The position numbers were made by a program, and so were the translations under genes. The notes beneath the pieces were generated by a model. The model was not told the DNA's origin and made no database searches. It saw only the letters and a program-made list of their open reading frames with translations. From Antedon bifida (taxonomy: Eukaryota > Echinodermata > Crinoidea > Comatulida > Antedonidae), in NCBI GenBank assembly GCA_963402885.1, contig OY727103.1, positions 14,720,085 through 14,784,084 of the forward strand: DNA of 64,000 nucleotides, read 5' to 3'. Positions 8,731 through 52,550 of the stretch are shown here, piece by piece. Within the stretch, counting starts at the first letter, position 1, and each line of letters opens with the position of its first letter.

Positions 8731-11700
8731 TCACAAAAACCCACCCCCAAAGTTCAACCGATTATGGTAGTTATCGCGGTGTCCACCACCTATTCCGGGT
8801 CTGTTAGATGGATCTCGAGATGGATCTCTAAATGGATTTAATGGGTCAAATCTTGCACCAGGTAGAGGTCCTGAATTTGGTAAACTTCCGATACCTCGTG
8901 GGTTGAACAAACTGGTTGGCGATTGTGAAAATGGATCTAGATCATAGTCTCCTCCTCTGAAAATAAAAGAAAAAAAACTTAGTGTGGTACATTCAAAAAC
9001 ATGATAATACACATTTATAATAACTCGACATTCCTGGGGTCGACCCAGAATTTCATTAATAGGGACTTTACAAAACATGTCGGGATAATCTATATATACA
9101 GTTCAAATTACACTTCTAATTTAATTGTTTAATTGTTAGAAGCGGCATTTGATTGCGAGGACCCTAGCAAGGAAGGTATCACCAGAACCAAGCAATTCAG
9201 AAGGGCCCTGCGTCATGAGACAGGGGAGGGTGCGTAACTAATAATTAGTTTTGGGGGTAGCGCACGATAATAAACACTTGCGATAATACAGAACAAAAAA
9301 CACCTATTTTAAAAATGTGTGTGGCCATATGATGATGTTAAAACTCTCGTCAAACAAAATTTTTGCATGAATTCATATTTACAACTCATCAGCTCCTTAA
9401 TAAGTAAAAAAAATAAATGGTCACCAGCCAGGAGATATGATAGATTCAAAATAAGCATGTTTTTAAAGTTTAACGTGCACATGGGTCTTTCTAAACTATT
9501 TACGCATTTGGAGGTGCTAAAAATCTCATGAAACATGTAGAAAGTTGATTAGAAATTAATTTTGCGTATTTTAAATGCACATGCGCATGTAAATTTGATG
9601 TCACAACATCCGATCTACCAAACTTTCAATAATAAATTGTAATTGTAATTACTACACTGGAAGGGCGTGGCTTAGATATTTACAACAACTTTACGTTTAA
9701 TGCTCTTGTAGGCTAAGGTCAGGAAGGTTATGTACCAGCAGAGGATAATTACTGACTAATTAATGTTGAAGTATGATGAATACTGTAATAAGCAGGATCT
9801 GATAATGACGTTACGAGCACAATATTGGCAATATGAACTACCCGGAGGTTAGGGTCTGGATGAGTTTGTGAATGACTTAAGAACAATGGCGGTTAGTTGT
9901 AAATTTGTGGATCAAGACGGTACGGTTCATGACAAGCTTTTCTTTAGTGTAACAAATTAAGATGTGCGATGATGGCAACGCTACACTTGATACTGTGATA
10001 CATCGAATGAGAACTTCTGAGAGTTCTAGACGCGAGCTTGAAATGGCCGGTGTTGCAAATGACTGTAAGCTGAAGGTTCATGCATTGAGCAAAACCAAAT
10101 TGCATAAGCATAAGCCGAGTGTTGGTGGTCAACAGAATCATCAGTTTGCGGATGCAGCCAAATTAAATGTAGCAGGTGGAGTTCTTAAAATCTACCTCTT
10201 CATGCTACGATGAATCATTTTCAATCTGTGTGCACCAAACGGTTTTTCCGAGGACGCAGCCGTGGACGTGGAAGAGCTGTACATACAATGGATGAACACT
10301 ATATTGTTGTCGAAGGTGTAAGTGATCCTAATGACTTATACATTGTCGAAGATAAAAATGAGTACTTTTATATTGACATTCTAAAAGATAACAGTAATAA
10401 GAACACTTGGTTCTATGATGTGTTAAAGATGAAGCTTGACACAGGAGCAGGTGCTAACTGCACACCTCTCGAAACATTTAGACAGCTACCAGGACATGAG
10501 AACATTAAAGTATATCTAAAACTAACCTATATCATAGTTATAATGATGAAATAAACATATTACTCTAAATGTCAAAGTTGATAACATCCAAAATGATTAT
10601 GATGTTGATGGTCTCCCCATACTTGGGTTGAAAACATGTAGTGAACTTGGTCTGATCAAACGTGGTAACAATATGGTGTTTCTCAAGTAGTCCATCTACC
10701 CCGCAGGGTGCCGCTTAGCCTGCATACCAAACTGAAAGAGAAACTGGATGATATGGAGAAGAGGGGTGTGATTAGACGGACAGACAAACCAACGGAGTGG
10801 GTCAACAGCCTAGTGATAGTTGAGGAACAAATGGATCCTTAAAGTGTGTTTAGAGTCAGCTGTCAGGTAATACACTTTCACTGAATTTGACCAGAAATAT
10901 GTGTACTGGCAAGTTCCTCTTATCAACGCTAGCGCAGATATATGTACATTCAATACTCCCTTCAGACGTACAGTTTTCTAAAAACGTCATTTGGTATCTG
11001 CAGTGCTAGTGAGGTGTTACAGAAACGATCCTTAACACCAAGTTGATAGATGGTGTTTCTCCAGTAGTCCATTCACCCCGCAGGTTGCCGCTTAGTGCTA
11101 GTGGGGTGTTACAGAAACGAAACCAGCAAATATTTGGTCATATACCTACTGTAATGTACACATAATATCTGATGATATGATTATTGCTAGGAATTTTCCT
11201 TTGTTGGTGTTTGGTTGTGACTAGACGGGTGCTGAATGACTAAAGATTGTCTCCAGTTGAGGTCGCCGATGGGTACTGTCAAGCCAAGGTTGTCAACAAA
11301 TGATGAGCGGAGCTGTACACATCTAGAATGTTGTTCGTGGAGCAGTGAAAGTGATTGGTAAAACATAAATGAGCAGAGCTGTACACGTCTAGTCTGTGAT
11401 TCATTTATTGGAAAGCGAGTGGTAGATCAAAGACAGATGAGCGGAGAAGTACGCTTCTAGCCTACAATGTTTGTGGTGCAGTGAAAGCGATTGGTAAAAG
11501 ATAGATGAGCAGAGCTGTACACGTCTAGTCTGTGATTCATTTATTTGAAAGCGAGTGGTAGATCAAAGACAGATGAGCGGAGAAGTACGCTTCTAGCCTA
11601 CAATGTTTGTGGTGCAGTGAAAGCGATTGGTAAAAGATAGATGAGCAGAGCTGTACACGTCTAGTCTGTGATTCATTTATTTGAAAGCGAGTGGTAGATC

Positions 11701-14700
11701 AAAGACAGATGAGCGGAGCTGTACGCTTCTACCCTACAATGTTTGTGGTGCAGTGACAGCGATTGGTAAAAGATAGATGAGCAGAGCTGTACACGTCTAG
11801 TCTGTGATTCATTTATTGGAAAGCGAGTGGTAGATCAAAGACAGATGAGCGGAGAAGTACGCTTCTAGCCTACAATGTTTGTGGTGCAGTGAAAGTGATT
11901 GGTAAAAGATAAATGAGTGGTAGATCAAAGACAGATGAGCGGAGCTGTACGCGTCTATAGTTATTTATTTATACTCACAAACTTTTGTTTATTTATATGT
12001 ATTGTGCCATGGATGGCCATGTTCTAGTTTTGTAAAGTTATAAGATTGTATATTGATAGTTGACAAACAAGTATTTATGTAATTCATTGATATGCCCAGA
12101 ACGAGTTGTTACTCGTAGTAGATATATTGAGAATTTATATTCAGATGTGGGGCTTAAATGAATAAATACTTGGATATACACTTATATTGTTTATGCGTAT
12201 TTCATTTGTTTCACGTGTTTAACTCGCAGGCACAGGTAGAAAAGGCTCGCACTAGATTATCGTGATCGTATATGTACACAGCTGATGCTTTCAGCAGAGC
12301 ATATTCTGATACGGTTGATTGTGATGCCCAAACCCTAGACGTAATATTGTCCATAAGTAAAGCAAAGATTGAAGAAGCAATACTAGCTACACAGGCAGAT
12401 ATATATGCATTCGCTGGCAGATACCATCTTATTGTAGTTGACTATTTTTCTAAATATCCTGAAGTACTGTAGTTACACTCCATAGCAAAACGGCTGGATC
12501 AATCATCAAGAAATTGAAATCCATATACTCAAGAATATTGTCGAATAAGCTAGATGACACTGTACCAATTCAACTTCGATGAAGAACAAACTCTTACCAA
12601 GTTTCCAGTCCAGGTTGTGGAATCCATTAGAAATGTTGAGCCATGTGACTGTTCACTATAAAACACCGTGTCAAACTGGACTTGGCTGGTTCACCGAATC
12701 GCATACTGTCGTCAATTCATTTTGAAAAACTGATTGAAAACCCTCTTGACTGCCTATGAATTATAAAAGACTGAATATGCACTCTTCTATGCTTCTCAGT
12801 GCGCCGGGAACGATCGTTTAGATGCTTAGAGTACGACGACGAGAGTGGTATTATAAGAGTTGAAGGAAGCTTCATATGCCTGAACAACAAAAGCGGCCAA
12901 TTCTTCTTCGTATAGAACAACTAGAGGCAATCATCTGCATAGAAATGTAGACGTGTTTGCGAATGATGTCACCAAGGGGAAGTGTATAAATGGAAAACTG
13001 GCCAGGCCCAATTACTGACCCCTATTCCAGGCAAGCTTCATCTGAGAATGCATCATTGATACAGACCAGTTGACCTCTTCCTGTAAGATATGACTGGAAC
13101 CAGTTAAGAGCAACACCATTTATGCCAATGTGATTTTTCAGACGGGTTATCAGTCTTCAGTGAACTGTATCGAACGCTGCTGACAAATCCAATAACACCA
13201 ATAGCGTTATTTTCCCATCATTCATTCCTTGTAACAAATCATTCTGTACCTTTAAAAGGGAACTCTCCGTGCTATGACATGCACGATATGCTGACTGGTC
13301 TTTCTACAACAACGGGTGGTAATTTTTCAGCGTGTTATGATCCAAGTTTTGCTTTTTTATTAAAGGACGAACGTGAGCAATTTCCAGTTCATGTGGCACT
13401 ATGCCTATTAAGATAATGGTTAATGATTTCCGTTATTATTGGGCCGACTGCACCTACACACTTCTTCAGTATAGAAGTAGGAACTGGGACTAACCTGCAT
13501 GATTTTTTGGTGATTTCATCAGAATGTTGCAGATTTCATCTTGAGATGCTGGTGTAAAAGTTGTGAGTTGCTGATGAACAGCTGTCACAGGCTCATCAAA
13601 TGACATGTCATCAGTCTTGAAGTCATCTGTGAAAAACTGACAGAACCTGTTCGCAAGATCTAAGTCAGAATGACTAACTGGGAGAGGTGATGCCTGATGA
13701 TGATGAAGGAGTTGGTTAACAATTTTAAAAAGTCCTTTTTGATCTGCTGCATGTTCTTCATACAAGCCAATGTAGTAGTTAATTTTGGCCTTTCTTGCCA
13801 TAGAATTTTTCTGTGCAATGTAAGCTTGAAGATCTATATCCAGATTCTACATTTCTTTTTAAGCTTACGCTTTGTTCTTTTCTCAGCATAGACATCATTG
13901 TTATACCAACTAGTGTTTGGCCGGACCTCTAATGTTCTCTTTTTCGGTGGTATGTGTTTGTCAAGAAGTTCGCTCAAATGGTGGCATATAGTCATATTTT
14001 ACTTGATAAATTAAGATTTGAGAGCGACATTCCGAGATCAGACTGTGTGATATCCTTACATAATGTTTTAAAACAGGAGGATCAGATGAACGAGTGATCA
14101 GCAAGTCTAATGTATGACCATGTCGGTGTGTAGGATAAAAGAAAGGCCTGTACATAAGCTATGTTTACAACTGTGGGAGAACTTAAGCATGGGTTTTCTT
14201 CTAAATAAGAATGCTTTGATTACTGTACGTAACTGTCTATTTAACTTGTGAAAATTTATCACTGTATTATAATTAAGATTCACTTTTGTTGGGGTTATTA
14301 TTTTCGAAATATTTTGTCACGAGGCTGGAGTGTTTCGGATTTCGAACATTGATGTTGGGGGCGTGAATGTTTAGTTTTGGTTTGTTAAGAATCATTTGCG
14401 TGAAATCACGCTTATTATCTAATAGTGGATAGCTTTCTAATTCGTGACAGTGATATGTGGAAATACTACGTACGTTGTTATAACAATTAAGTAGTGTTAC
14501 TGTTCTAGACTATTTGGATGTCATTTTGAACGTAGTAGTTTGCAGATGTGCTGTCTTTTGCAAGTTTTCTTGCTTGTTTTGATTGAGTTTTCAGACTTTA
14601 CCAAAGAATAAAGCATGGTTAAAGTATCTACCACAAGTTTGTGTATCATTGTCCAGACTAATAATTACAGAAAAAAAAGAGGAAGATGATTCCAGACAAT

Positions 14701-25691: not shown

Positions 25692-26245
25692 TACGTTTAT
25701 TGTTTGTTTACGTCGTGTGCACTGTAGTTTTTTTAAAATCAATTATTAACATTAAAAAGCGCCCTCAAACGGTAGATAATGACAATAGCAGCAAGTAACA
25801 TCAACAAAAATATTTTAATGGGCAACCTTGTTTGTTACAATCATGCCTTTCTGTAGTCGAATCTCCTTATGCAACTATTTATTTGTATTATTATATGTAT
25901 TACTGCTTTTTTCTCTTGATATGGATTTGTCCAAAATAAACATTTAATTGAATTGATTGAAAGGAAAGGGTAAGACATTGGAATGAAAATGTAATAAAAA
26001 GGAACATTCTTTTAAAATTAATAATAAGTATTTATTAACATCACCGATATTTTTAAAAGTTACAATATAAATAATACTTTGCATGATAATAACAAAATAA
26101 ACAGTTGTTTATTAAGATTAATCAGAATTATCACAAATTATTTGACAATAGTAAATCTAATATAATTAATTCAAGTGTCATATTTAACACTTTAGTTTAA
26201 ATTTTATAAGCATAACAATCTAATTCATTTTCGAGTTTAGATTAT
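25692..26245. other. Region between homeobox gene and FBXO7
   Basis: 554 bp between the FBXO7 start codon (25691) and the homeobox stop (26246), both on the minus strand. It must contain the FBXO7 5'UTR and promoter and the 3'UTR of the homeobox gene. It is AT-rich, and I see no TATA box or CpG-rich core that I would call. Confidence 0.4.
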
Positions 26246-27720
26246 CTAATTACACCACGGTCTGCAGAATTGTGATTGCTGTATGTCTAAGCTAATGGGT
26301 GGGTCAGCGGTTCTTCGATGATGAGGCTCCAGTGGCCAAGCAGGTAGAGCTGATGGTACGATTGGTAGGTGCACACACTGAGGTAAGCGCCTTCTCTGTA
26401 CACGATAGTACACAGGATAAGTTACAAAAGGTACTGGAACATTAGGATAGATATATGATGGCACTGAAGGGCGTTGCTCGTGAACGGATGACCTCAATTT
26501 TCCGGGTAATTCAGACTTCAAAACCAATGGTGGTGGAATTTGCTTTGAGGGTTTGCATACAGAAGTAGGTAGATAATGAAGGCTTCGTTTGGTTGCTACG
26601 TGTGGTGCCACTGGCGGGAATGGAAAAGCTGTCTTTGGTTCCATTGTTGGTTTCTCAGGAGATGATGACCGTGGTTGTTGAGGAGATGGTTGTTCTTGTT
26701 TTGGTTTCTGAATCTTGGTAGCATCTTCGTTTGAAGTGGGCAAGATTTGACGAACATAGTTTCGAACTTTGGTGCGTTCACGTCTTCGTCGATGTTGGAA
26801 CCACGTCTAAGAAAAAAATAAATGCATAAGTAATTAGTAATTCAATTATTAATAAACTTATGTGAGCGAATAGTCTACAGCTTTTCCAATGTTGTCACTG
26901 ACGCAGGAGAGGACGACATGAACATTATTTCTACACTAGCAGTGTAGTAAAAAGATTGAAAAAGATTTTTAAAACAACAAACATTTTGTCGGCAACAAGC
27001 GGCCAAAACAGTATCTGTAACACAATCGGACCAGTCACTTTATAATGTTATTGCTTTAAATTTAATTTTAAAAAGGATATCATCAAAAGATAATATTCAT
27101 ACCTGTATTCTAGATTCGTTGATTTTAATAACGCCAGAAATGGTTTCTCTGACGGTAATGTCAGGATAACGATTAGTCTTGAAGACACTTTCCAGAAGAC
27201 GCACCTCTTGGTCACTGTACACAGTTCGTTTACGACGAAGTCTTTTAAGTGGTGGGCCATCAAATACTCCTTCAGGAATTACTGAAAATGAAAGAAATAT
27301 ATTTTAGATACAATTATCGCCAATTTGTTTAAAACAATCCGGAACAAAAGGTTGCGCTGCGCAGACATTAACACCCAACTATGATACCCAATTACGCCAC
27401 AAATTGGTGGGGCTAAAATAGTCAGTTTATATAATATAAATCAAAAATGTTCGTTTTTATTGCAAAATGCATCATATAATGTATAGTAGCCCGAAGGCTA
27501 AAACCACAATATTTACATAACTGATGGGGCATTATAAAAATATATCAAACATCAAAATAAGAAACCATATACCATACAATAAAATATTAATATCATACAC
27601 AAACAGACTGCCTGCTGCAACCAACAAAATGGTTATTTAGTTCAAAAACTTACCATATTTTGGTTGAGATTGTAGGCCTACATCAAACGAGATGGCTTCA
27701 AGTTTACTCTGGTTCTCCAT
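26246..27720 (-). CDS. PRD-type homeodomain protein with His at position 51
   Basis: Presumed DNA-binding transcription factor, 268 residues, three coding exons: 27654-27720, 27103-27281, 26246-26806, all in frame. The homeodomain is about residues 37-96: LRRKRTVYSDQEVRLLESVF, YPDITVRE, then RIQTWFQHRRRRER. Core residues Arg5, Leu16, Phe20, Trp48, Phe49, Gln50 and Arg53 are in place, and Tyr25-Pro26-Asp27 is typical of the PRD class. The intron falls between homeodomain codons 46 and 47, the classic PRD-class position. The oddity is His at 51 (residue 87) where nearly all homeodomains have Asn. There is no paired domain. The C-terminal 170 residues are Pro/Ser/Gln-rich with a PSYIYPNVPVPFVTYPVYY stretch and no recognised motif. 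It is transcribed head-to-tail upstream of FBXO7. I cannot assign a named family; a fast-evolving PRD-like gene is the best description. Confidence 0.85.
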
Positions 27721-39669: not shown

Positions 39670-41796
39670 TTAAACTTCAAATACTTGTGCTACTATAATA
39701 TCATCTGTGTATATACTTTCCTCTGGCTCCGATATTTCAACAGTTGTAAAGTTGTGCCCGACATGTTTTTCTTTGAGATGTCTGGTGAGCCCATGTTTAT
39801 GTTTGTAGCTTAACCCACAATGGTGACAACAGAAGAGTTTGTCATCCGAATGCTTATGTTTATGTCGTGCAAGCTCATTGCTCCGACGGCCAGTCCAAGA
39901 GCACTGATTGCATTTAAATTTCATCTCATCTTTAGTGATATGCACCTTCTTATGACTGTACAGACTGAACCGTGTGTGTCCTACATAGTCGCATTTATCG
40001 CATGGGTACGGTATGTCTTTGTTGTGGGTCTCTTGATGGCACTTCAATGCTGATGCCAACTTAAATGATTTGCCACAAGTCTCACAAATATAGTTCTTTG
40101 TCTCAAGATGAGTATACTTAACATGAGCCTTTAAAGCTTGTGAATCTTTCGTTTTGTATGGACAAATTGAACATGAATGGTATGGTAGATTTTCACTGAA
40201 ATGTTTCAGTTCTTTATGTTTTTTAATACTATCAATCCAGAAAGAGTCAAAATCGCAGAGGTCGCAGGAATGTTTTATTCCTTTGTGCACCACCATATGT
40301 TGCCGAAGTGATCTCTTTGTTTTGAAAGCTTTGTCACACTCCTTACATTTTTGTTTTCGTTCCTCAAAGTGAGAGGTATAATGGTCGCGATATACTGATT
40401 TTTTTCTGAACATTTTGTTGCAAAGGTCACAGACAATTTCTGGTTGTGATGTTGGTGGTGGACAAGATTTTCTTTTGTAAGGAGTTTTTGATTTAACTCC
40501 CTTTGGACGACCTCTTTTTTTGCCACATCTTCCATTCTTATGATGTCTGCGTAGTGATTTGCTTGAATTAAATCTGGCATTACAACCAGGACAATACACA
40601 ATCTTTATTTCTTTTGGTTTCTCTTTGTGCTGCATCCCTATATGGATATTTAAAGAATGTCTGGTGTTTGTCGTGAAGTTGCAGAGTGCACAACTAATTG
40701 TTAGTGAGACTCCATTTCGCTGTGGTACCCGACATTCTGGTGTTGATTCCTGATGCTGATGTAGCTTACCATATCTAGCAAAGCTGACTTTGCATGTCTG
40801 GCATTGATATCGTATTTTTTCAGTGGTTGGTAGATGCTCGTGCGAGTGAGACCAGTGTTCATTCCAGCTAGAACACTTAAAGCCACACTGCTTACAAAAA
40901 ATCTCCTTATCTTTTGCTGGTGAACAGTCTTGAGGTAGGTCTAAATTTTTGCCATCTGTAGAAACTAAGTTCAAATTAATCACAGGTTGTTCAAGAGTGA
41001 GGCAAGGTTGTTCCTGAGTAATGCCAGGTTGCCTAAGCACTATTGCAGACTGCCCAAGCGTGACTGCAGGTTGCACAAGCGTGACTGCAGGTTGCCCAAG
41101 AGTAACAGCAGGTTGTCCAATAGTGACAACAGGTTGTTCTAAAGTGACAGTAGGCTGGTTAATATGTGTCACATAGGTAACACCATTTTGAACACTTAAA
41201 ATAGCTGGCGGCATAGTTGTATTGCTAAACAATGGTCCTACAGAACCAGTATTAACTGATACAGAGTCAATTGTTGTTTTGTCTGTAGCATTACTTTTGC
41301 TAATGTATGATTTTGTTATATCAATCTTTTTATTCTGTGGTTCATCTTCTGATCTGGGTTCTGCAGACCTTTTCCATGTTTTCTTTGCACTAGTGGGGCG
41401 AGGTACCATATCACTGTCAAGTATAATCCGTGTGTGTAAACTTTTTGGTGGAGACGATAAATTAGTTTTTGTTGTAGAATACTGTTTGCATAAATTATCG
41501 ATAACTTCTTGTTGTTCACTTGATATATTTTTGATGATTTCTTGTTGTTTACTGCTTGTATTATCTACCAGGCTTTTGTTATTTTTTAAATCTTTGACCT
41601 TCTCACAAGCTGCCTTCCATTCTGATTCATGAACTCCAATCATATGAGCAATTACAACAGACCGACTTAATGAGCTAAACTTGTTATTGCATAATTTACA
41701 GCGATAAAACTGAATAAGTACAATGTCTAGGTTTTCTTCAGCAGCTGACCAGTCTTTACTGCTAACTGAATTCGGAAGAATCACCGGATTAACCAT
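39670..41796 (-). CDS. 13-finger C2H2 zinc-finger protein
   Basis: Probable sequence-specific DNA-binding protein, 708 residues in one coding exon. ATG at 41796 is preceded by TCTTCCTGCAG (41818-41828 region), a 3' splice site in the 5'UTR. An N-terminal segment has ILPNSVSSKDWSAAEEN, then IQFYRCKLCN and a first finger (about 31-57), matching the neighbouring THAP protein. Residues about 75-210 are low-complexity with a basic patch. Residues 213-272 are a Q-P-x-V-T-L-x heptad repeat (about nine copies). About 295-690 hold twelve further fingers, two of them C2HC (ending CRVP and GRC), one basic stretch KKRGRPKGVKSKTPYKRK resembling an AT-hook/NLS, and canonical FKC/YIC-type fingers. The linkers are mostly not TGEKP. 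The end is acidic (EISEPEESIYTDDIIVA). It is not a KRAB, SCAN or BTB protein. Orthology not recognised. Confidence 0.92.
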   Translation of the reverse strand: MVNPVILPNSVSSKDWSAAEENLDIVLIQFYRCKLCNNKFSSLSRSVVIAHMIGVHESEWKAACEKVKDLKNNKSLVDNTSSKQQEIIKNISSEQQEVIDNLCKQYSTTKTNLSSPPKSLHTRIILDSDMVPRPTSAKKTWKRSAEPRSEDEPQNKKIDITKSYISKSNATDKTTIDSVSVNTGSVGPLFSNTTMPPAILSVQNGVTYVTHINQPTVTLEQPVVTIGQPAVTLGQPAVTLVQPAVTLGQSAIVLRQPGITQEQPCLTLEQPVINLNLVSTDGKNLDLPQDCSPAKDKEIFCKQCGFKCSSWNEHWSHSHEHLPTTEKIRYQCQTCKVSFARYGKLHQHQESTPECRVPQRNGVSLTISCALCNFTTNTRHSLNIHIGMQHKEKPKEIKIVYCPGCNARFNSSKSLRRHHKNGRCGKKRGRPKGVKSKTPYKRKSCPPPTSQPEIVCDLCNKMFRKKSVYRDHYTSHFEERKQKCKECDKAFKTKRSLRQHMVVHKGIKHSCDLCDFDSFWIDSIKKHKELKHFSENLPYHSCSICPYKTKDSQALKAHVKYTHLETKNYICETCGKSFKLASALKCHQETHNKDIPYPCDKCDYVGHTRFSLYSHKKVHITKDEMKFKCNQCSWTGRRSNELARHKHKHSDDKLFCCHHCGLSYKHKHGLTRHLKEKHVGHNFTTVEISEPEESIYTDDIIVAQVFEV
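40980..41160 (-). repeat. 21-bp coding tandem repeat in zinc-finger gene
   Basis: About eight and a half copies of a 21-bp unit (plus-strand form AGGTTGCCCAAGCGTGACTGC) encode the QPAVTLG heptads at residues 213-272. Neighbouring central units are almost identical and the edge units more diverged, the usual pattern of unequal exchange or slippage. Confidence 0.9.
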
Positions 41797-41817
41797 AATG
41801 TGAAATTGCTATGAAAT

Positions 41818-44006: not shown

Positions 44007-47000
44007 TCAGATTCTCTTTTCATCTTCTTCTCCCTTTTTCACTACGGCATCTTCACCAACTACCCGAAGAAGTTTTTGCAAGAAATGAGTTGTTTTCTCT
44101 GAAATAACAAAGATAAATTGATGTTTATTTCCGATTTGTGTTCCTGGAAAAACCTGAGATTGTTATATAAACCCACCCGAGAGAAAAATTACTAAAATCA
44201 TGTTTGGTCTTACAATATACATTACTATAAAACAAGGAATATCCAAAACTTACTAGATAAATTTGAGATGCATTCAATGCGTGGTTTTCTGTAGATCGTG
44301 AGATAGTAGATAGGCAATCCACTCAATGTAATAATGACCCCAATTAATGTGTCCAATGGATCTGATATTGTTCCGAGTATAAGCAAGCCGATAGACGCCA
44401 AAACAAAAATGATTGGTATAGCCAAGTTGATCTGAAAATATATATATATACACATTGCAACTTTGTTTGATGGAAGTATCCTTGAAATTACAATATAAAC
44501 TATATATTCAGTAGAACCCCTATAAAGGGATACCTTCGGAACCCAACATGTCCTCAAGTATTCATATTTACAAGCGTCTTTGTGTAAGTGAATTGTAACC
44601 TACTGTGTAAGGCTTAGCAATATCAGGACGTTTCCATCTGAGGTACAAAAGGGATGCAACGGCCAAACCACTGGCACTCCACTCAACAAAACTGAAGAAG
44701 TTTATCAACATCCAAACATCATCAACAAAAACGTAGATTAGGGTGGTAACACACTGTAGAGAAATGAAACATGTACATAATGAATGGTAGAAGTCACGAT
44801 AAATGCTCAGACTACTTTCAAAAGGATTTAATAAAAAACATCCTTCAATATACAATATATACCGTGATTAGGAGAGATGGAAGAGGGGTCTTGAATCTTA
44901 GGTTCACCATTGCAATTATACTAGGAAGCATACCATCTCTGGCACCGGCAAAATATAATCTGAAAAATAAAACTTAACATTACTGTATGAAACTGGATGC
45001 CCCTAAACAAGATATTGATGATGAAAATTACCATTAAAAAAGTGAACTTCTTTTTATCTTCAGTTCAAACAAATGTATAAATTATAACAGATTATTATTC
45101 AGTATATCACCAGGCGGGTTAAAAATTTGCCTGTAAATGATTATAACCAGACAAATAATAACAAAAATCTAAATTATAATAGTTAAAGTCTTGTTTGGAT
45201 AACTGTTTTCCATCTCACATATTTTTTTTCATCTTTTCATATACTTGTTTTAATATGCCTTTATCACTTCTAGGGTTTAATTTCCTGTGAACCTACTCTA
45301 TTGATTTTCGCGCACAAACTCTCATAACATTCAACCTAGTAATAATAACCTAAAGGTTGGGAACAACAAAGAATGGCAATTATAATACTGTACTCTATTG
45401 AAAATGAAATCATCCAGAATGCTGTGATTGGCTAACGTACAATCTGTGCTAAATTAAACTATTGTGGTGTAATCATTAAACCATAGTTTGTTTAGATAAT
45501 AATTAATCATTCACATACTGTAGTACCATATTGCTTTTTGAAGTTTTAATTTATTTTGAGAGCACATTGAACCAGTAGCGTTGTTTTGTACTGTAGATTA
45601 AAAACATTCCTTAAACAAAATGTGTTTTTTGGATCTCAAGGCCTTACAAAGAGATACAACCTATCAAATAATATGGATCCAATATAATAACACTTAGGAA
45701 GAAGTTCCTAGAAGTTAAGTAATCCTTACGGAGAACCTAGATTCCTTCAATTGAATTGATATATACCTGGAGATGGCCAATAGACTACCATTGATGGAGC
45801 CAAGGGTCGATAGAGCCACAGATACCGGAATGATCCATGCAAACTTTCCAAGTGCTTTCTCACCAAATGTCTATCATACAAAACAAAACAAGTAAATACA
45901 AATTGAAAGTTAATGGTACAATGCATATCTAGTATATAGTATATTTGTTTAAATGTTCATGTGTAATTTAAAGTAAGAAAACAATTTCAATGCCTTCTTA
46001 CCACAGCCACAGCATTTGATATCATTATTTCATCAGTTGTGAGGATAGAGAAATAAGCGACATTTGTTAACACATAGATGACGACACAAAGGAACAATCC
46101 AGCAACAATTGCTTTTGGCAAGTCCCTGTTATAAAAAAATACGTACTGTCAAGTTATTAATACTGAGTACAGGAGAGGCACTCATACCTCTAAATTGATT
46201 GATTTTTTCAAATTATATTTTAATAATTGAAGAAGAAAATAGAAATGTTTTTAAATTGTTTTACAAACCTTTTGGGATTTTTCATTTCTTCTGTCATAAA
46301 GTTTAAGCAGTTCCTATAATAAAAAGATACATTTCCATAACAAATACATTTAAAATACATTGACATAAGAAACATAGAAACGATTAGTCAGGTGGGGTAC
46401 CAATAGGTTGCTTCTATGCCTCCTGTATTACTGAGCATCTTCGAGTTTCTCTACATAAGGAAACAACTGCAGTTTTTGCAGTCTGAAGGGGTGAAAATAT
46501 TGTACTATTCTACGGGTTATATGCATTTTCTATTTGTTTGTTATTAGATTATTGTTGAAACCAATCAATCAGTTCCATATGGAGCATAATCACTAAACAG
46601 TTGGTAAATATTATATATTTCATAGCCTCCTGATATATTGATACACCAATAATAATAATAATAAATATCATATTTATATTCCACTGCTTTAAAGGTCATG
46701 AATAATAATTTATTAATATATTCTGTATTTGTTTTTATGGTTATAAAATACTCTACAATATTGTTACAGTAATAATTAATCTGTCATGGATTATCAGTAC
46801 CTGCAGAATTGTTTAGAATAATAATAATTAACTTTATATTTTGTCTTTTATTGTAGTTACAGTAATAGAGTAAAAAAAAAAAATTACTGTAGTATTGGAG
46901 ACAGAGTAATGGACAATGCTGGATTTTCTAAAATTCAATATTCACTAGTACATACATACAAACAAAGTAAACGGAATCAATTCCATAAAATTAATTGAGA

Positions 47001-50000
47001 TCAAATGGTCGATCAGCATGCTTCAATATGCCGTAGGATTTGAATATGATACAGAGAATTGTTTTCACATATGCACATTACATTTAATCAAATCTCACTG
47101 TTGACACCACGGGACAATAGTAAAAGCTTTCCTAACGCATTAGCAACCATCGTGTACTGTGTGTGTCTGTGTACTAAACCAAATTTTTATTAACATTAGG
47201 CCTATAGAGTGGAGTTGTATATTGGTTTCAGGTTGTAGATTCAAATCTTGTCTGCTAGGATATCTTATGAGAAACAACTTCACTCACACAAAGACTAAGA
47301 TAGTGTCTAATAATGTATGTCACAGGCTCTGATACAGTGTGGTCTGTATACTGTAGTAGACTCTATAAAATTCATTCATTCTCCAGTTAGGCAAATTGCC
47401 AAGAATGGTCATAATGTCATAATTTGTAAGGTCATTTAAAGTGCTTCTCAAACGTGGCAAACTAAACAACACACACAAGATTCTCTACATGAACTAAGTT
47501 GTATAAGAAGTCTTTTGGAGTGGAGTTTTTTTGTGACATATGACATTGATTCAGATTTGAACCCATGACTAACCATCCTGAGTAAGACCAGAGTCCAGAG
47601 TAGAATGCTGCTCCTAAACCTGTCCACTGGATGTTGGTAAAAGAATTATCAAATGATCCCACTCCACCATCTGAAAAACAAAATAATCAAAATTCAATAA
47701 ACATTTGAAAGTTACATACTGGTACCAAATTAGTATTGGAAAACTTTTGTTTTATATTAATTTCATTTTATTTGAAATTGAAATACTTGAAATTGAAATA
47801 AAATTAATAACAGGGATGAAATTCCACATTAAGAAAAACTAACTCTATGTTCGTAATTGTCATAATTACGGAGTTTGAATTAATTTCTCGTGTATAGTAC
47901 TAACATGTATCATACCGTTAATGATTTAGAAATTCGGCTAAACACACTTTGTCACACTTGCATATCAATATATTAACACTACATAAGGTCAACAAGGAAT
48001 ACAAAATTTAGATTTTGAAGATTCAGTGTGTCATCAATGGTTTAATCACAAACATTCTTGAAAAATTAAGATCAATTGAATTCTGCTGTACACATTGCTC
48101 TGAAATTGAACACTAAATAAGTAATTTTATACAAACCGCAATAGGTTCATGCTGTTTGAACTTGGCCTTAAAAAGAAAAGGCTAACAAATTTGGACAACA
48201 TACTTTTACCGTACTGTAGCAATGTAACATTAAAAAACCAAAAATGTTGTCAAGCTAAACTCTTTTTTAAATATATAATAATTTTGACTTGTTGAGTTTA
48301 CAAACATGTTAAAAGTTGGTAGATTCACATTTATTGTAAATCTTCAGGCTGACGTACACTATACCCATAATTGAGCATTTCTGGTGTGTAGAAAAAAGAT
48401 ACCAATGTAAATAAATTGCTAGACTATGACAGTTTCACCTTATCATAGACTTTCAAAGATTTGAATACAGTGGATTGTAAATCTTTTTAGGGTGTGAATA
48501 AGAAAACATTTAATTTCACAAAATACCAGCCTTTGTTGAAAGCTTTTTTAATAATATAAATTCATTGAATCTCTACAACTAAACAAAATCTGCTAACATC
48601 AAGAAATGTTTTAAAAGGGTTTCAAGGTTATAACATTGTAATTAATAATCTTTACTACAGTAGTTACTGTAGTACTGTACAACAATAAGTTTGGAAATAA
48701 AACCTTTCATATTAGAATTGACAACCAAACAATTCAAAGTACTTTCAGAAGTATTATAAAATACATACAAAAAAACTGTATGCAACTCAGTAAAGATACA
48801 GGTTTTATTCCAGCCAACAAAAAAATTGTATTTATGTTAACTGTTTTTATTACATATTGCAGGATTGATACTATTTGGTTAAAAAAAAAAACTGAAATAG
48901 GCCATGTAGTTGAAACAATGTGGGGGGGGGGGGGGGCAGGGTCTTTATGATAAGACGTTAGAGATAGACCTACAGGAATTGTTAACCGGTAAACCTTCTC
49001 TGGAGCAAGAAACAAAAATCTCCTGTGTGAACATAATTCAATAATAAATGGCTGAATGGTAATTACAATATTTTTTCATGTCCTATTCATACATATATAG
49101 GTTATCTAGTAATCTTTACGTAAGTAAGGCTTTTACGAAATTCTAACCATTTGATAGAGAGTAATAAATGTCAAATTGTTTGGCCCGGTCAATTTTTAGA
49201 CCAAAAATGAACCAATAAAAATTAATCGATAAATTGCCTGTGAAAATAGTGGTTTAACTGATTCCACTGAAGAAAAATTAACCGATAATTATCTCATTCA
49301 AATCGAATAAATTTTAAAATTTAAACTTATAATGTGATGTATTTCACAGATTTTACATACATATTGTGTTAATAATCTGATGGTAAAGTGCATAAGATAC
49401 AGTAATATCATTATTACTCAATTCTAATTCCCTAAAGAAGTTCAATCATACATCAAATAATTTCAAAATCTTCCTGGAAGGGTCATCAGTTTAAAGCACT
49501 TTCTCCATGACAATATTCTTAATAAATCTATCAGAATTTTTTAAAATGTATTTATTCTTAAGAATGATTACCATAATCTTGACAGAACTGAATTACTGTA
49601 TGACCCAGCTGAGACCAAATTTAAAAAACTTTTGCAATAGTACATTCAATATATTTTAAAACCAATTGTTCTGATTAATTCCCTCCAGTAAAACAAATCA
49701 TTTTTAGTTCTTTCAACCTTTAACTGATGGAATTCATCTTATAGATTTCCTTCATGCACCATTTCAAACTATATTGTAACTGTAATTAACCGTAAATTAA
49801 TAATTAAAAATATTTGCTTGGTTGGAAACAAAAATTACCATAATCTATATTCCATCCAGTTTTAATACTAAATGGTAATATATAACTCAATTGTACTTCG
49901 AAGTTTTAGAAAAATTCTTGTTTTTAACAAACTATCTTTAAAATATTTGAACCATAAAAATTATCATAATGGATTCGCCAGCTTACCTAATGGAATGGAT

Positions 50001-52139
50001 TATAATAAACTTGAGTTTTAGGTCAAATTTGTGACGCATCATTTAAAACTACAGTACTGTATTCTGTAAAGTATTAAAAATGTCTGCATGGTTGGAAATC
50101 AATTCAAAACTACAGTTGGTCCTCAAAAGTGAATAGCAATATGGTCCAATGAAAAGGAAACAGAACTAAGTCTAAAATTTGACCAAACCTACCCATGGGC
50201 ATCAATGGAAGTTATGGCATGGAAGATTAGATATTCAGTAAAGGTGTTTTGTTGCAATTATTTAAGGCAATTATTGTCTGCAGTACTGTTTTTTCAACAA
50301 TTAAATAACTTTTTTAACAGGTTATTACTGTAGATCATACATGCAATTTTATGCTAGTATACAGATATACATACAGTAGTTTTTATGGTGACAAGTTAGA
50401 TATTGAGTTTTTTTTCCATGAGAAAAAATCATGACAAGTGGGTTTATTATTAATATCATTATTATTATAATAAAGTCTGGATGTTTTACTTCTTACTTTA
50501 AAAATAATATGTTACTATAACTTACGTTTGAATAGGCCTACAAAACCTGTTATGATGATTATAATGAGCGCAAGAACTTTAGCTACTGTCAAGGAATCTT
50601 GTATTCGAGTTGCAGAACGAACACTCACACAGTTTACGTAGGTCATTGACACTAAGAAAATAAAAGTTTATATTATAATACAAATAGTACAATTATTTAT
50701 GTACATTATTAATAATATAAGATATTAAATATTGGATAAGAAAATAGTTTAAAAAAAAGATTTTTTTTTAAAGTATTCTCGCAAAAACATTAATATACTA
50801 ACTGTAAGTGTAGAGGTGTTTTATTTTTATGGGGAAACACCATACTTCATATATAATATCAATATAATACAATCTTGTTTGATCTGCAGTATCTCTCTGA
50901 TGAAGGTCAGACAATTTGTCTGGACATTCTCAAACAACCTGTGATTGGTCAGTTTTTAAACAGACGCTTACTCTAGTATTTCTGAACAAAACAACTACAG
51001 TATATATTTTATTCTCAAACAAACAGAATAACATATCAATATAAAAATTCAATATATCATACGATGTGAAAATAATTATTTATTATAATATATTTATTTA
51101 TTATAATTATATGGACGACTTCCCAAAACATGTAGATCATCACACGTGACGTCTGGCTCATTATTTGTAATCATGTAATTTATTCTTCAATTCAGATTTT
51201 ATCATCAGAAATACTTTACTTTAAAGTCCTATATTAATACCGTATATGCTTTTACGCACAATAAGAGGTTTATAGTTTGTTTATAAACTTTTAAACACAG
51301 GCAACAAATTACTGTACTGTACAAAGTACCCTCTCTTCTAATAAGAATTTTATTACACATATACATACATCAAACAAACATGTACGGAGGCATTTGCGCT
51401 AAATAAACAATTTTATTGATTAATATTTGTTTTGATTGCCTCGGCTGTCGTTTATTGATAATCTTAACTTGAATGTAAATGTCCGTATGCACACGTCAGG
51501 AGGAAGCAATAGTCTAAGATTTAATCATGCTTTTCCCTTTTTCCTGCAGGACAGTCAATGTGTTTTCCATATGGAATTTTAGATATATGTATTCCTAGCC
51601 AAACAAAGTAAAAGTTAGCTTTTAATTTTTATAAAGTGGGGTTTCACCAATCAAAACATAACAAAAGAAAATATAAAAAAGAACTTACTGACACCAACGA
51701 GGGCTAACAATCGAATACAAACTGATGGTATTGGACACACATTTAAAAAGAAAGGCTCCAAAACGTATTCTGCAAAAGTTAGCGCAATAATAGCTATAGA
51801 AGTAGGTATATTAATTACGATCATTGTCCACTGAAAAAGAAAAGCTAAAACGTCTCCAAACGCTTCGCGAATATAAACATATGTTCCACCGTATCGTGGG
51901 ATTGCTAGGCCCAGCTCTGCGAAGCACAGGGCTCCCATCGTGGAAAAAAGACCACACAGCACCCATATGATCAGTGACATACCAACGGAACCAATACTAT
52001 CCAGAATTCCTTTTGGTGAAAGGAAAATACCAGATCCAATAATGACTCCAACATTCACACATATTCCACTGAAAAGTCCTAATTCTGGCTTGATCCTTAC
52101 TGAAGACTGAGATCCCGTGTTTTCAACAGACCCCGACAT
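44007..52139 (-). CDS. SLC7 light-chain amino-acid transporter (LAT/xCT-like)
   Basis: Twelve-helix plasma-membrane amino-acid exchanger of the APC superfamily, 487 residues. Exons: 51689-52139, 50526-50651, 47574-47670, 46269-46313, 46002-46125, 45767-45870, 44863-44959, 44604-44753, 44254-44431, 44007-44098; all phases fit. The N-terminus is cytosolic, then TM1 has the substrate-binding GVIIGSGIF, followed by [19 protein letters not shown] and [18 protein letters not shown]. In the extracellular loop between TM3 and TM4 the sequence FFLNVCPIP has Cys135 where LAT-family light chains make a disulfide to an SLC3 heavy chain. Later motifs: [38 protein letters not shown], and a C-terminal [16 protein letters not shown]. 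By eye it is closest to SLC7A11 (xCT) and other LATs, but I cannot name an orthologue. The GTTAGT donor after the third exon is weak. It is divergently placed to the next gene. Confidence 0.93.
47671..50525. other. SLC7 introns, AT-rich, no gene seen
   Basis: 2.9-kb intron between the second and third SLC7 coding exons. It holds a poly-G run at about 48922-48936, a small direct duplication (TTGAAATTGAAAT twice at about 47770-47800), and many copies of the words TACTGTA and ACAGTA. No exon or recognised transposon. The neighbouring intron 46314-47573 is similar, with ATA/AATAATAAT simple repeats near 46650. Confidence 0.5.
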
Positions 52140-52550
52140 TGTTTACTATACTCGTGGCTAGTTCCAAAACATGTGCTTTCTCTCCTCCAAAACTACAGTC
52201 CCCGCGCGCTGCGTCGATATCCGACCAATAATGTAACACTTTATTAGCCCACATTGTATATATCGTTGAATATTCATTAATTGTGCAATGAACCGTGTAC
52301 AGCACAATATACTTCCGGTGCAGCGATAGCAGAAGCCGGATATGACGTAAAAATAGTTTTTAAATAAATATTATTAATTAATTAATGTTTATTAGCTGCT
52401 AAAAACACGTGGACAATTTCATTTACAATAATAATCGTTTATTGGCTAATTTAATTTATATATTTATTTAGCAAATTTTACAGTCCCTTCAAATTATCAA
52501 CTTTTATACTGTGATAATGGGGTGAAATGTAGGCCTACCTTTTAAGGTTC

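What the first reader, a model, noticed from the sequence alone, without database searches (positions are those of the whole stretch)
26246..27720. Homeodomain with His replacing Asn51
Seen: the homeodomain reads WFQHRRRRER; the codon at position 51 is CAT in an otherwise intact gene with correct phases, ordered core residues and the PRD-class intron between codons 46 and 47. Known: Asn51 makes the bidentate contact to adenine in TAAT and is almost never replaced in functional homeodomains. Inference: the protein has either changed DNA specificity, lost specific binding (for example a dominant-negative or protein-binding role) or is a lineage-specific fast-evolving PRD gene.
Basis: partly seen in the sequence, partly recalled or inferred. 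Interest (0 to 1): 0.75.

Follow-up and report, generated by a model that had tools for sequence, protein, structure and literature searches.

The report
Feather-star homeobox gene lacking Asn51
This is an intact, fast-evolving control gene in an echinoderm (probably a feather star) whose DNA-reading part carries histidine where nearly all its kin have a key DNA-contacting asparagine, so it may read DNA differently or work through partner proteins; which of these is true is untested.

Summary
A three-exon minus-strand gene (27720-26246, 268 codons) encodes one homeodomain with GT-AG introns, a phase-0 intron between codons 46 and 47, and CAT (His) at position 51. It passes Pfam's homeodomain cut-off (57.1 against 22.9 bits) and is PRD-class by intron and residues. 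Of 20 PRD-type loci fetched, 16 showed their exon 3, and all 16 have Asn51; WF(Q/K)N-type sites number 65 in the genome (reversed control 4); of 5 WFQH sites (control 3) only this one sits in a recognisable homeodomain. Positions 47 (Thr) and 54 (Arg) also differ from all 16, while Arg5, Tyr25, Arg31, Trp48, Phe49, Gln50 and Arg53 are kept; the clustering at base-reading positions is not significant (p = 0.15). It has the longest branch of 28 rows (2.84, median 0.26) and no resolved place. COX1 fits the echinoderm code; the Hox set fits a crinoid. Most likely: a lineage-specific PRD factor with altered or partner-dependent DNA recognition. Loss of DNA binding (as in HOPX) is the main rival. 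No orthologue, transcript or read was available.

The parts
27654..27720 (-). exon 1 (coding part): ATG to the first base of codon 23, donor GTAAGT
27103..27281 (-). exon 2: homeodomain N-terminal arm, helices 1-2 and start of helix 3, up to Gln46; AG acceptor, GT donor
26807..27102 (-). intron 2, phase 0, between homeodomain codons 46 and 47 (PRD-type position)
26246..26806 (-). exon 3: rest of helix 3 (TWFQHRRRRER) and a proline-rich C-terminal tail, TAG stop
26792..26794 (-). codon 51 of the homeodomain, CAT (His)
26108..26113 (-). first AATAAA after the stop (132 nt on), a candidate polyadenylation signal; consensus match only, several others follow

Best explanation
An intact, single-copy, lineage-specific PRD-class (Gln50, paired-like) homeobox gene of an echinoderm, probably a comatulid crinoid, whose recognition helix has been rewritten. 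SHOWN: the reading frame, splice sites and homeodomain scaffold are intact; Arg5, Tyr25, Arg31, Trp48, Phe49, Gln50, Arg52 and Arg53 are kept; positions 47 (Thr), 51 (His) and 54 (Arg) are outside the repertoire of the 16 other PRD genes of this genome that could be read there. INFERRED: the protein still docks on DNA through the N-terminal arm in the minor groove and the backbone contacts, but the two-bond Asn51 contact with the third base of TAAT is gone, so the core is read differently or loosely; His51 and the added Arg54/Arg55 could favour another base step, and useful target choice then probably leans on partners or on the proline-rich tail.
For: Gene model and phases. Pfam homeodomain 57.1 bits. 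13 of 18 positions invariant in the own-genome PRD rows are kept; the five lost are 8 (F to Y), 12 (Q to E), 51, 54 and 55 (K to R) (table). Drifting this coding sequence without selection to 26 of 57 identical homeodomain residues left 0 of 2000 simulated copies open and 0 of 2000 with all 13 kept scaffold residues (mean 5.9), so the protein was under coding constraint for most of its divergence (substitutions only, and started from this gene, not an ancestor). No close paralogue: the next-best match by E-value is 33% identical over 60 residues.
Against: No binding data, orthologue or transcript. Position-51 changes in other homeodomains are damaging: NKX2-5 N188K was among the variants most damaging to binding of its target site (passages of the preprint PMC12191230; position 51 by my numbering), and HOXA13 N372H is listed among mutations found in hand-foot-genital syndrome (passage of PMC5725892; position 51 by my numbering). 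The concentration of changes at base-reading positions is not significant (p = 0.15; for 51 and 54 among the 18 invariant positions p = 0.065). In the divergent mammalian ETCHbox genes helix 3 is the most conserved stretch (passages of PMC4904359), unlike here. The simulation does not speak to the time since His51 arose.
Confidence: 0.48

Rival explanations
1. The homeodomain no longer binds DNA specifically and works through proteins, as a tethered cofactor or a dominant-negative partner of another PRD protein. HOPX is the precedent.
For: [quoted passage not shown] NKX2-5 N188K loses target-site binding yet keeps protein interactions and gains a strong HAND1 interaction (passages of PMC12191230). 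Ubx N51A still co-precipitates with Pho (figure legend in PMC6513553). Asn51 is the adenine-contacting residue (passage of PMC11832328).
Against: Arm and backbone-contact residues (R5, Y25, R31, W48, R53) and Gln50 are kept, and positions 52-55 are all arginine, where the 16 paralogues have Ala at 54 and Lys at 55; not expected if DNA contact had been abandoned long ago. No insertion between helices 1 and 2 as HOPX has; the protein is 268 aa.
Confidence: 0.25
2. The gene is under relaxed constraint: an orphan drifting towards loss, with His51 one of several slightly damaging changes.
For: Longest branch of the tree (2.84 against a median of 0.26) and no close relative in the genome.
Against: No stop, frameshift or splice defect in 268 codons; neutral drift to this divergence never left an open frame (0 of 2000). 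Recent relaxation is not excluded.
Confidence: 0.2
3. His51 is a sequencing or assembly error, or a rare allele; CAT is one transversion from an Asn codon.
For: A single base separates the two; reads were not available.
Against: Recognition residues 47 and 54 are also changed, so the helix is divergent apart from codon 51; the genome is assembled into 27 contigs, which suggests accurate long reads (inference).
Confidence: 0.05

Closest known systems
PRD-class (paired-like) homeodomain factors such as Prrx, Otx, Gsc, Pitx (names of the own-genome rows are my reading)
   Same: 46/47 intron, Y25-P26-D27, R31, E42, R44, W48-F49, R53; 33-46% identity to the 21 own-genome PRD rows
   Different: His51, Thr47, Arg54, Arg55, Glu56; no paired domain; no OAR or eh1 motif by simple pattern
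DUX4 homeodomains (best PDB matches)
   Same: 39-42% identity; similar entry to helix 3 (ESRIQ in the second DUX4 domain)
   Different: DUX4 chains have two homeodomains and Asn51; the tree does not join them; the PDB holds few PRD homeodomains, so 'best' means little
HOPX
   Same: PRD class, 46/47 intron, very divergent homeodomain (passage of PMC2211742)
   Different: HOPX is 73 aa with an insertion between helices 1 and 2; here 268 aa and no insertion
pmar1/phb genes of echinoderms
   Same: Paired-type homeobox genes of echinoderms; phbA and phbB are called pmar1-related (passages)
   Different: A phbA primer printed in PMC8505446, turned over and translated, reads VQVWFQ followed by a cut codon AA-, so Asn or Lys, not His. 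The thirty P. lividus hbox12/pmar1 genes have two exons (passage of PMC5370098), here three. Relationship untested

Membership tests
Homeodomain superfamily | Pfam PF00046 above the curated cut-off | tested here: met
   57.1 against 22.9 bits, profile 1-56 of 57
Homeodomain superfamily | Asn at position 51 (near-universal base contact) | tested here: not met
   CAT, His. Not an absolute criterion: the PROSITE pattern as recalled admits H, and the protein matches it
PRD class | intron between codons 46 and 47 | tested here: met
PRD class | class-typical residues (Y25, P26, D27, R31, E32, E42, R44) | tested here: met
   per-position table
PRD class | phylogenetic placement in a PRD family | tested here: inconclusive
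   end branch of 2.84 in an unresolved part of the tree; the bootstrap had not settled
PRD class | paired domain, OAR or eh1 motif (present in only part of the class) | tested here: not met
   only PF00046 above cut-off (PF05920 13.6 bits, cut-off 24); eh1 and OAR patterns absent
Hopx family | one-residue insertion between helices 1 and 2, about 73 aa | tested here: not met
   57 ungapped homeodomain columns, 268 aa
Hopx family | no DNA binding | not testable with these tools
   needs PBM, SELEX or EMSA
Dux family | two homeodomains in one protein | tested here: not met
   one homeodomain stretch
pmar1/phb | sequence orthology to echinoderm pmar1/phb | not testable with these tools
   no echinoderm protein set held; Yamazaki 2020 not held

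The most novel reading that the evidence does not exclude
A crinoid PRD-class factor in which the base-reading set except Gln50 (47, 51, 54) was replaced under selection, giving a homeodomain that recognises a non-TAAT core through His51 plus Arg54/Arg55: a natural case of re-specification through the supposedly untouchable position 51.
Probability: 0.2. Interest if true: 0.7.

Novelty: new variant of a known kind. Interest (0 to 1): 0.42.

Why it matters
Asn51 is the residue that homeodomain recognition models treat as fixed; large surveys sample reference alleles and so cannot see what happens when a highly conserved position changes (a point made in the discussion of PMC11006913, passage). 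A natural, intact gene with His51 and changed 47 and 54 makes it directly testable whether position 51 can be re-specified or only lost. In evolutionary terms it would add an echinoderm case to the known fast, asymmetric evolution of divergent PRD genes such as the mammalian ETCHbox genes (passages of PMC4904359).

Tried and rejected
A second, canonical exon 3 used by alternative splicing: none in the window (0 matches), and the only WF(Q/K)N-type site on contig C16 found lies near base 210000. Other His51 genes: the 4 other WFQH sites in the genome lie in frames interrupted by stops, with no homeodomain-like sequence around; the reversed-pattern control gives 3, so they look like chance. One of the four (L079) does follow an AG, but its frame stops 14 codons on and one search lists no homeodomain near it. 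A recent duplicate of a known PRD gene: no close paralogue. Family assignment by tree: failed through the long branch. PDB neighbours as a guide to the family: not informative. Review PMC4901127 was searched for position-51 wording: N51, Asn51, asparagine and position 51 had 0 occurrences; PMC11006913 likewise for N51, Asn51, position 51 and His51. Papers naming a natural His51 homeodomain: none recognised in the listings (open-licence full texts only; most listed papers were not opened; of those opened, passages only). Three more opened at the end speak of Asn51 as conserved (PMC5575656 and PMC5626728) or of Ubx N51A (PMC6513553). A genome paper for the suspected species: 0 papers. The bacterial-type promoter scan and the Rfam scan (0 matches) say nothing about this gene. 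Structure prediction was not run: the spliced protein is not found letter for letter in the DNA, which that tool requires.

Full report
OBSERVATION. The sequence at 27720-26246 on the minus strand reads as described. The coding sequence is ATG at 27720, exon 1 of 67 nt, exon 2 of 179 nt, exon 3 of 561 nt with a TAG stop ending at 26246; both introns are GT-AG, and the joined frame gives 268 residues. The homeodomain runs RRKRTVYSDQEVRLLESVFKTNRYPDITVRETISGVIKINESRIQ | TWFQHRRRRER, the bar marking a phase-0 intron between codons 46 and 47. Counting Trp as 48, residue 51 is His, codon CAT, at 26794-26792 (from the match position). Pfam scores the homeodomain at 57.1 bits against a cut-off of 22.9.

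NOT CHANCE. Exon 3 is 561 nt without an internal stop in a window of 34% G+C; 7 of 20000 order-1 Markov sequences with its own composition, and 0 of 5000 with the window's, stay open. The WFQH DNA motif by itself would not be evidence: in the whole genome the pattern occurs 5 times against 3 for the reversed control, and the other four lie in frames with stops and no homeodomain. What makes it real is its place in a spliced homeodomain.

ORGANISM. The window lies in a 315.6 Mb assembly of 27 contigs. Contig C27 carries COX1 and I take it as mitochondrial. Read with the echinoderm code (table 9) COX1 scores 811.9 bits against the best PDB chain, and 787.0 with the invertebrate code (table 5); all 4 AAA codons fall where that chain has Asn. 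Table 9 also serves some flatworms (recalled). The Hox cluster on C1 has twelve Hox homeodomains (7263754 to 7643584) plus an Evx-like one (gene labels are my reading), including Hox4-like, Hox6-like and three Hox11/13-like genes. The passages of PMC4066700 give Hox4 as absent in echinoids and holothuroids, Hox2 as absent in asteroids and ophiuroids, three Hox11/13 genes as an ambulacrarian trait, 11 or 12 genes as likely for crinoids with Hox6 undecided, and 12 for hemichordates too. The Hox set alone would thus also fit a hemichordate; with the mitochondrial code I infer an echinoderm, most likely a comatulid crinoid.

RELATIVES IN THE SAME GENOME. The domain query finds itself and then only distant homeodomains, the next by E-value at 33% over 60 residues. 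Of 98 homeodomain matches I fetched 20 of PRD type with downstream sequence and found the exon carrying codon 47 onward in 16 of 20; all 16 have Asn51. For the other 4, and for one more PRD-type exon in a short locus (L075), a WF(Q/K)N-type site lies further downstream on the same strand, splicing not checked. Some weak or partial matches were never read. Over the genome this site type occurs 65 times, with 4 in the reversed control. In the per-position table the gene keeps 13 of 18 positions that are invariant among the own-genome PRD rows (3, 5, 6, 17, 20, 25, 26, 31, 42, 48, 49, 52, 53) and loses 8 (F to Y), 12 (Q to E), 51 (N to H), 54 (A to R) and 55 (K to R). At position 47, Val or Ile in all 16 that could be read, it has Thr. 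Of the base-reading positions 47, 50, 51 and 54, three are outside the paralogue repertoire; of the other 53 positions, 19 are (one-sided p = 0.15). That is a leaning, not a proof. In a 28-row tree (21 own-genome PRD rows, 4 other own-genome homeodomains, 2 DUX4 domains and this gene) it has the longest end branch, 2.84 against a median of 0.26, and is unplaced; the bootstrap had not settled and the tool warns about long branches.

IS IT A LIVING GENE? Drifting the actual coding sequence without selection until its homeodomain falls to 26 of 57 identical residues (the identity to its nearest own-genome relative, L040) left 0 of 2000 copies without a stop, and 0 of 2000 with all 13 scaffold residues, mean 5.9. 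The model has substitutions only, starts from this gene, and the 13 residues were chosen because this gene keeps them. Most of the divergence therefore happened under coding constraint. This does not date His51 and does not exclude recent relaxation.

HOW IT PROBABLY WORKS. Structural work puts Asn51 in a pair of hydrogen bonds with adenine 3 of TAAT, with residue 47 touching the neighbouring bases and 50 the flank (passage of PMC11832328); 47, 50 and 54 are the primary specificity positions (passage of PMC11006913). This protein keeps the arm arginine, the backbone contacts and Gln50, but changes 47, 51 and 54 together. I take the likeliest reading to be a DNA-associated factor with altered or loosened core reading, helped by partners. 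The strongest contrary facts are that known position-51 changes are harmful: NKX2-5 N188K (position 51 by my numbering) strongly loses target-site affinity while keeping protein contacts and gaining HAND1 interaction (passages of the preprint PMC12191230), and HOXA13 N372H (position 51 by my numbering) is listed among mutations in hand-foot-genital syndrome (passage of PMC5725892). Ubx N51A still binds the Pho protein (figure legend, PMC6513553). HOPX shows that a PRD-class gene with the same intron can lack DNA binding (passage of PMC2211742). In divergent mammalian PRD genes helix 3 is the best-conserved part (passages of PMC4904359), which is not so here. Protein-only action is therefore the main rival.

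COMPARISON AND NOVELTY. It is a homeodomain protein of the PRD class by intron and residue signature; it fits no named family that I could test. It is not Hopx (no insertion, much longer) and not Dux (one domain). Relationship to the echinoderm pmar1/phb genes could not be tested: no sequences are held, Yamazaki 2020 is not in the library, and a phbA primer shows only VQVWFQ followed by a cut codon AA-, Asn or Lys. His51 as such may not be unprecedented: the PROSITE homeobox pattern as I remember it lists H at this column, and the protein matches that pattern. I therefore call it a new variant of a known kind, with moderate interest that would rise if His51 proves conserved among crinoids or the domain shows a new motif.

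Noticed in passing
own genome C1:7229929-7643748 (loci L002-L005, L007, L008, L083-L089): A compact cluster of twelve Hox-type homeodomains beside an Evx-like one, in posterior-to-anterior order with one posterior gene inverted. If the genome is a crinoid's, this speaks against the translocation of anterior Hox genes that a 2014 review (PMC4066700, passages) proposed for all echinoderms; later work may already say so (not searched).
   Followed up: partly
own genome C27 (locus L090): Contig whose COX1 fits the echinoderm mitochondrial code better than the invertebrate one (811.9 against 787.0 bits; AAA at Asn positions).
   Followed up: yes
44228-52142, minus strand: Exons of an amino-acid permease-like transporter (PF13520: 57.5 bits in 51654-52142; 20.7 bits, below the cut-off of 27, in 44571-44867).
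   Followed up: partly
39673-41808, minus strand: A 712-codon open frame with C2H2 zinc fingers, with short 21-bp tandem repeats inside.
   Followed up: no
11332-11917: Tandem array of a 136-bp unit, 4.3 copies, 96% matches; a 68-bp period also fits at 65% matches.
   Followed up: no
own genome C13:14069236-14071734 (locus L024 covers part): Four homeodomain matches in one 3043-codon open frame (Zfhx-like by my reading).
   Followed up: no
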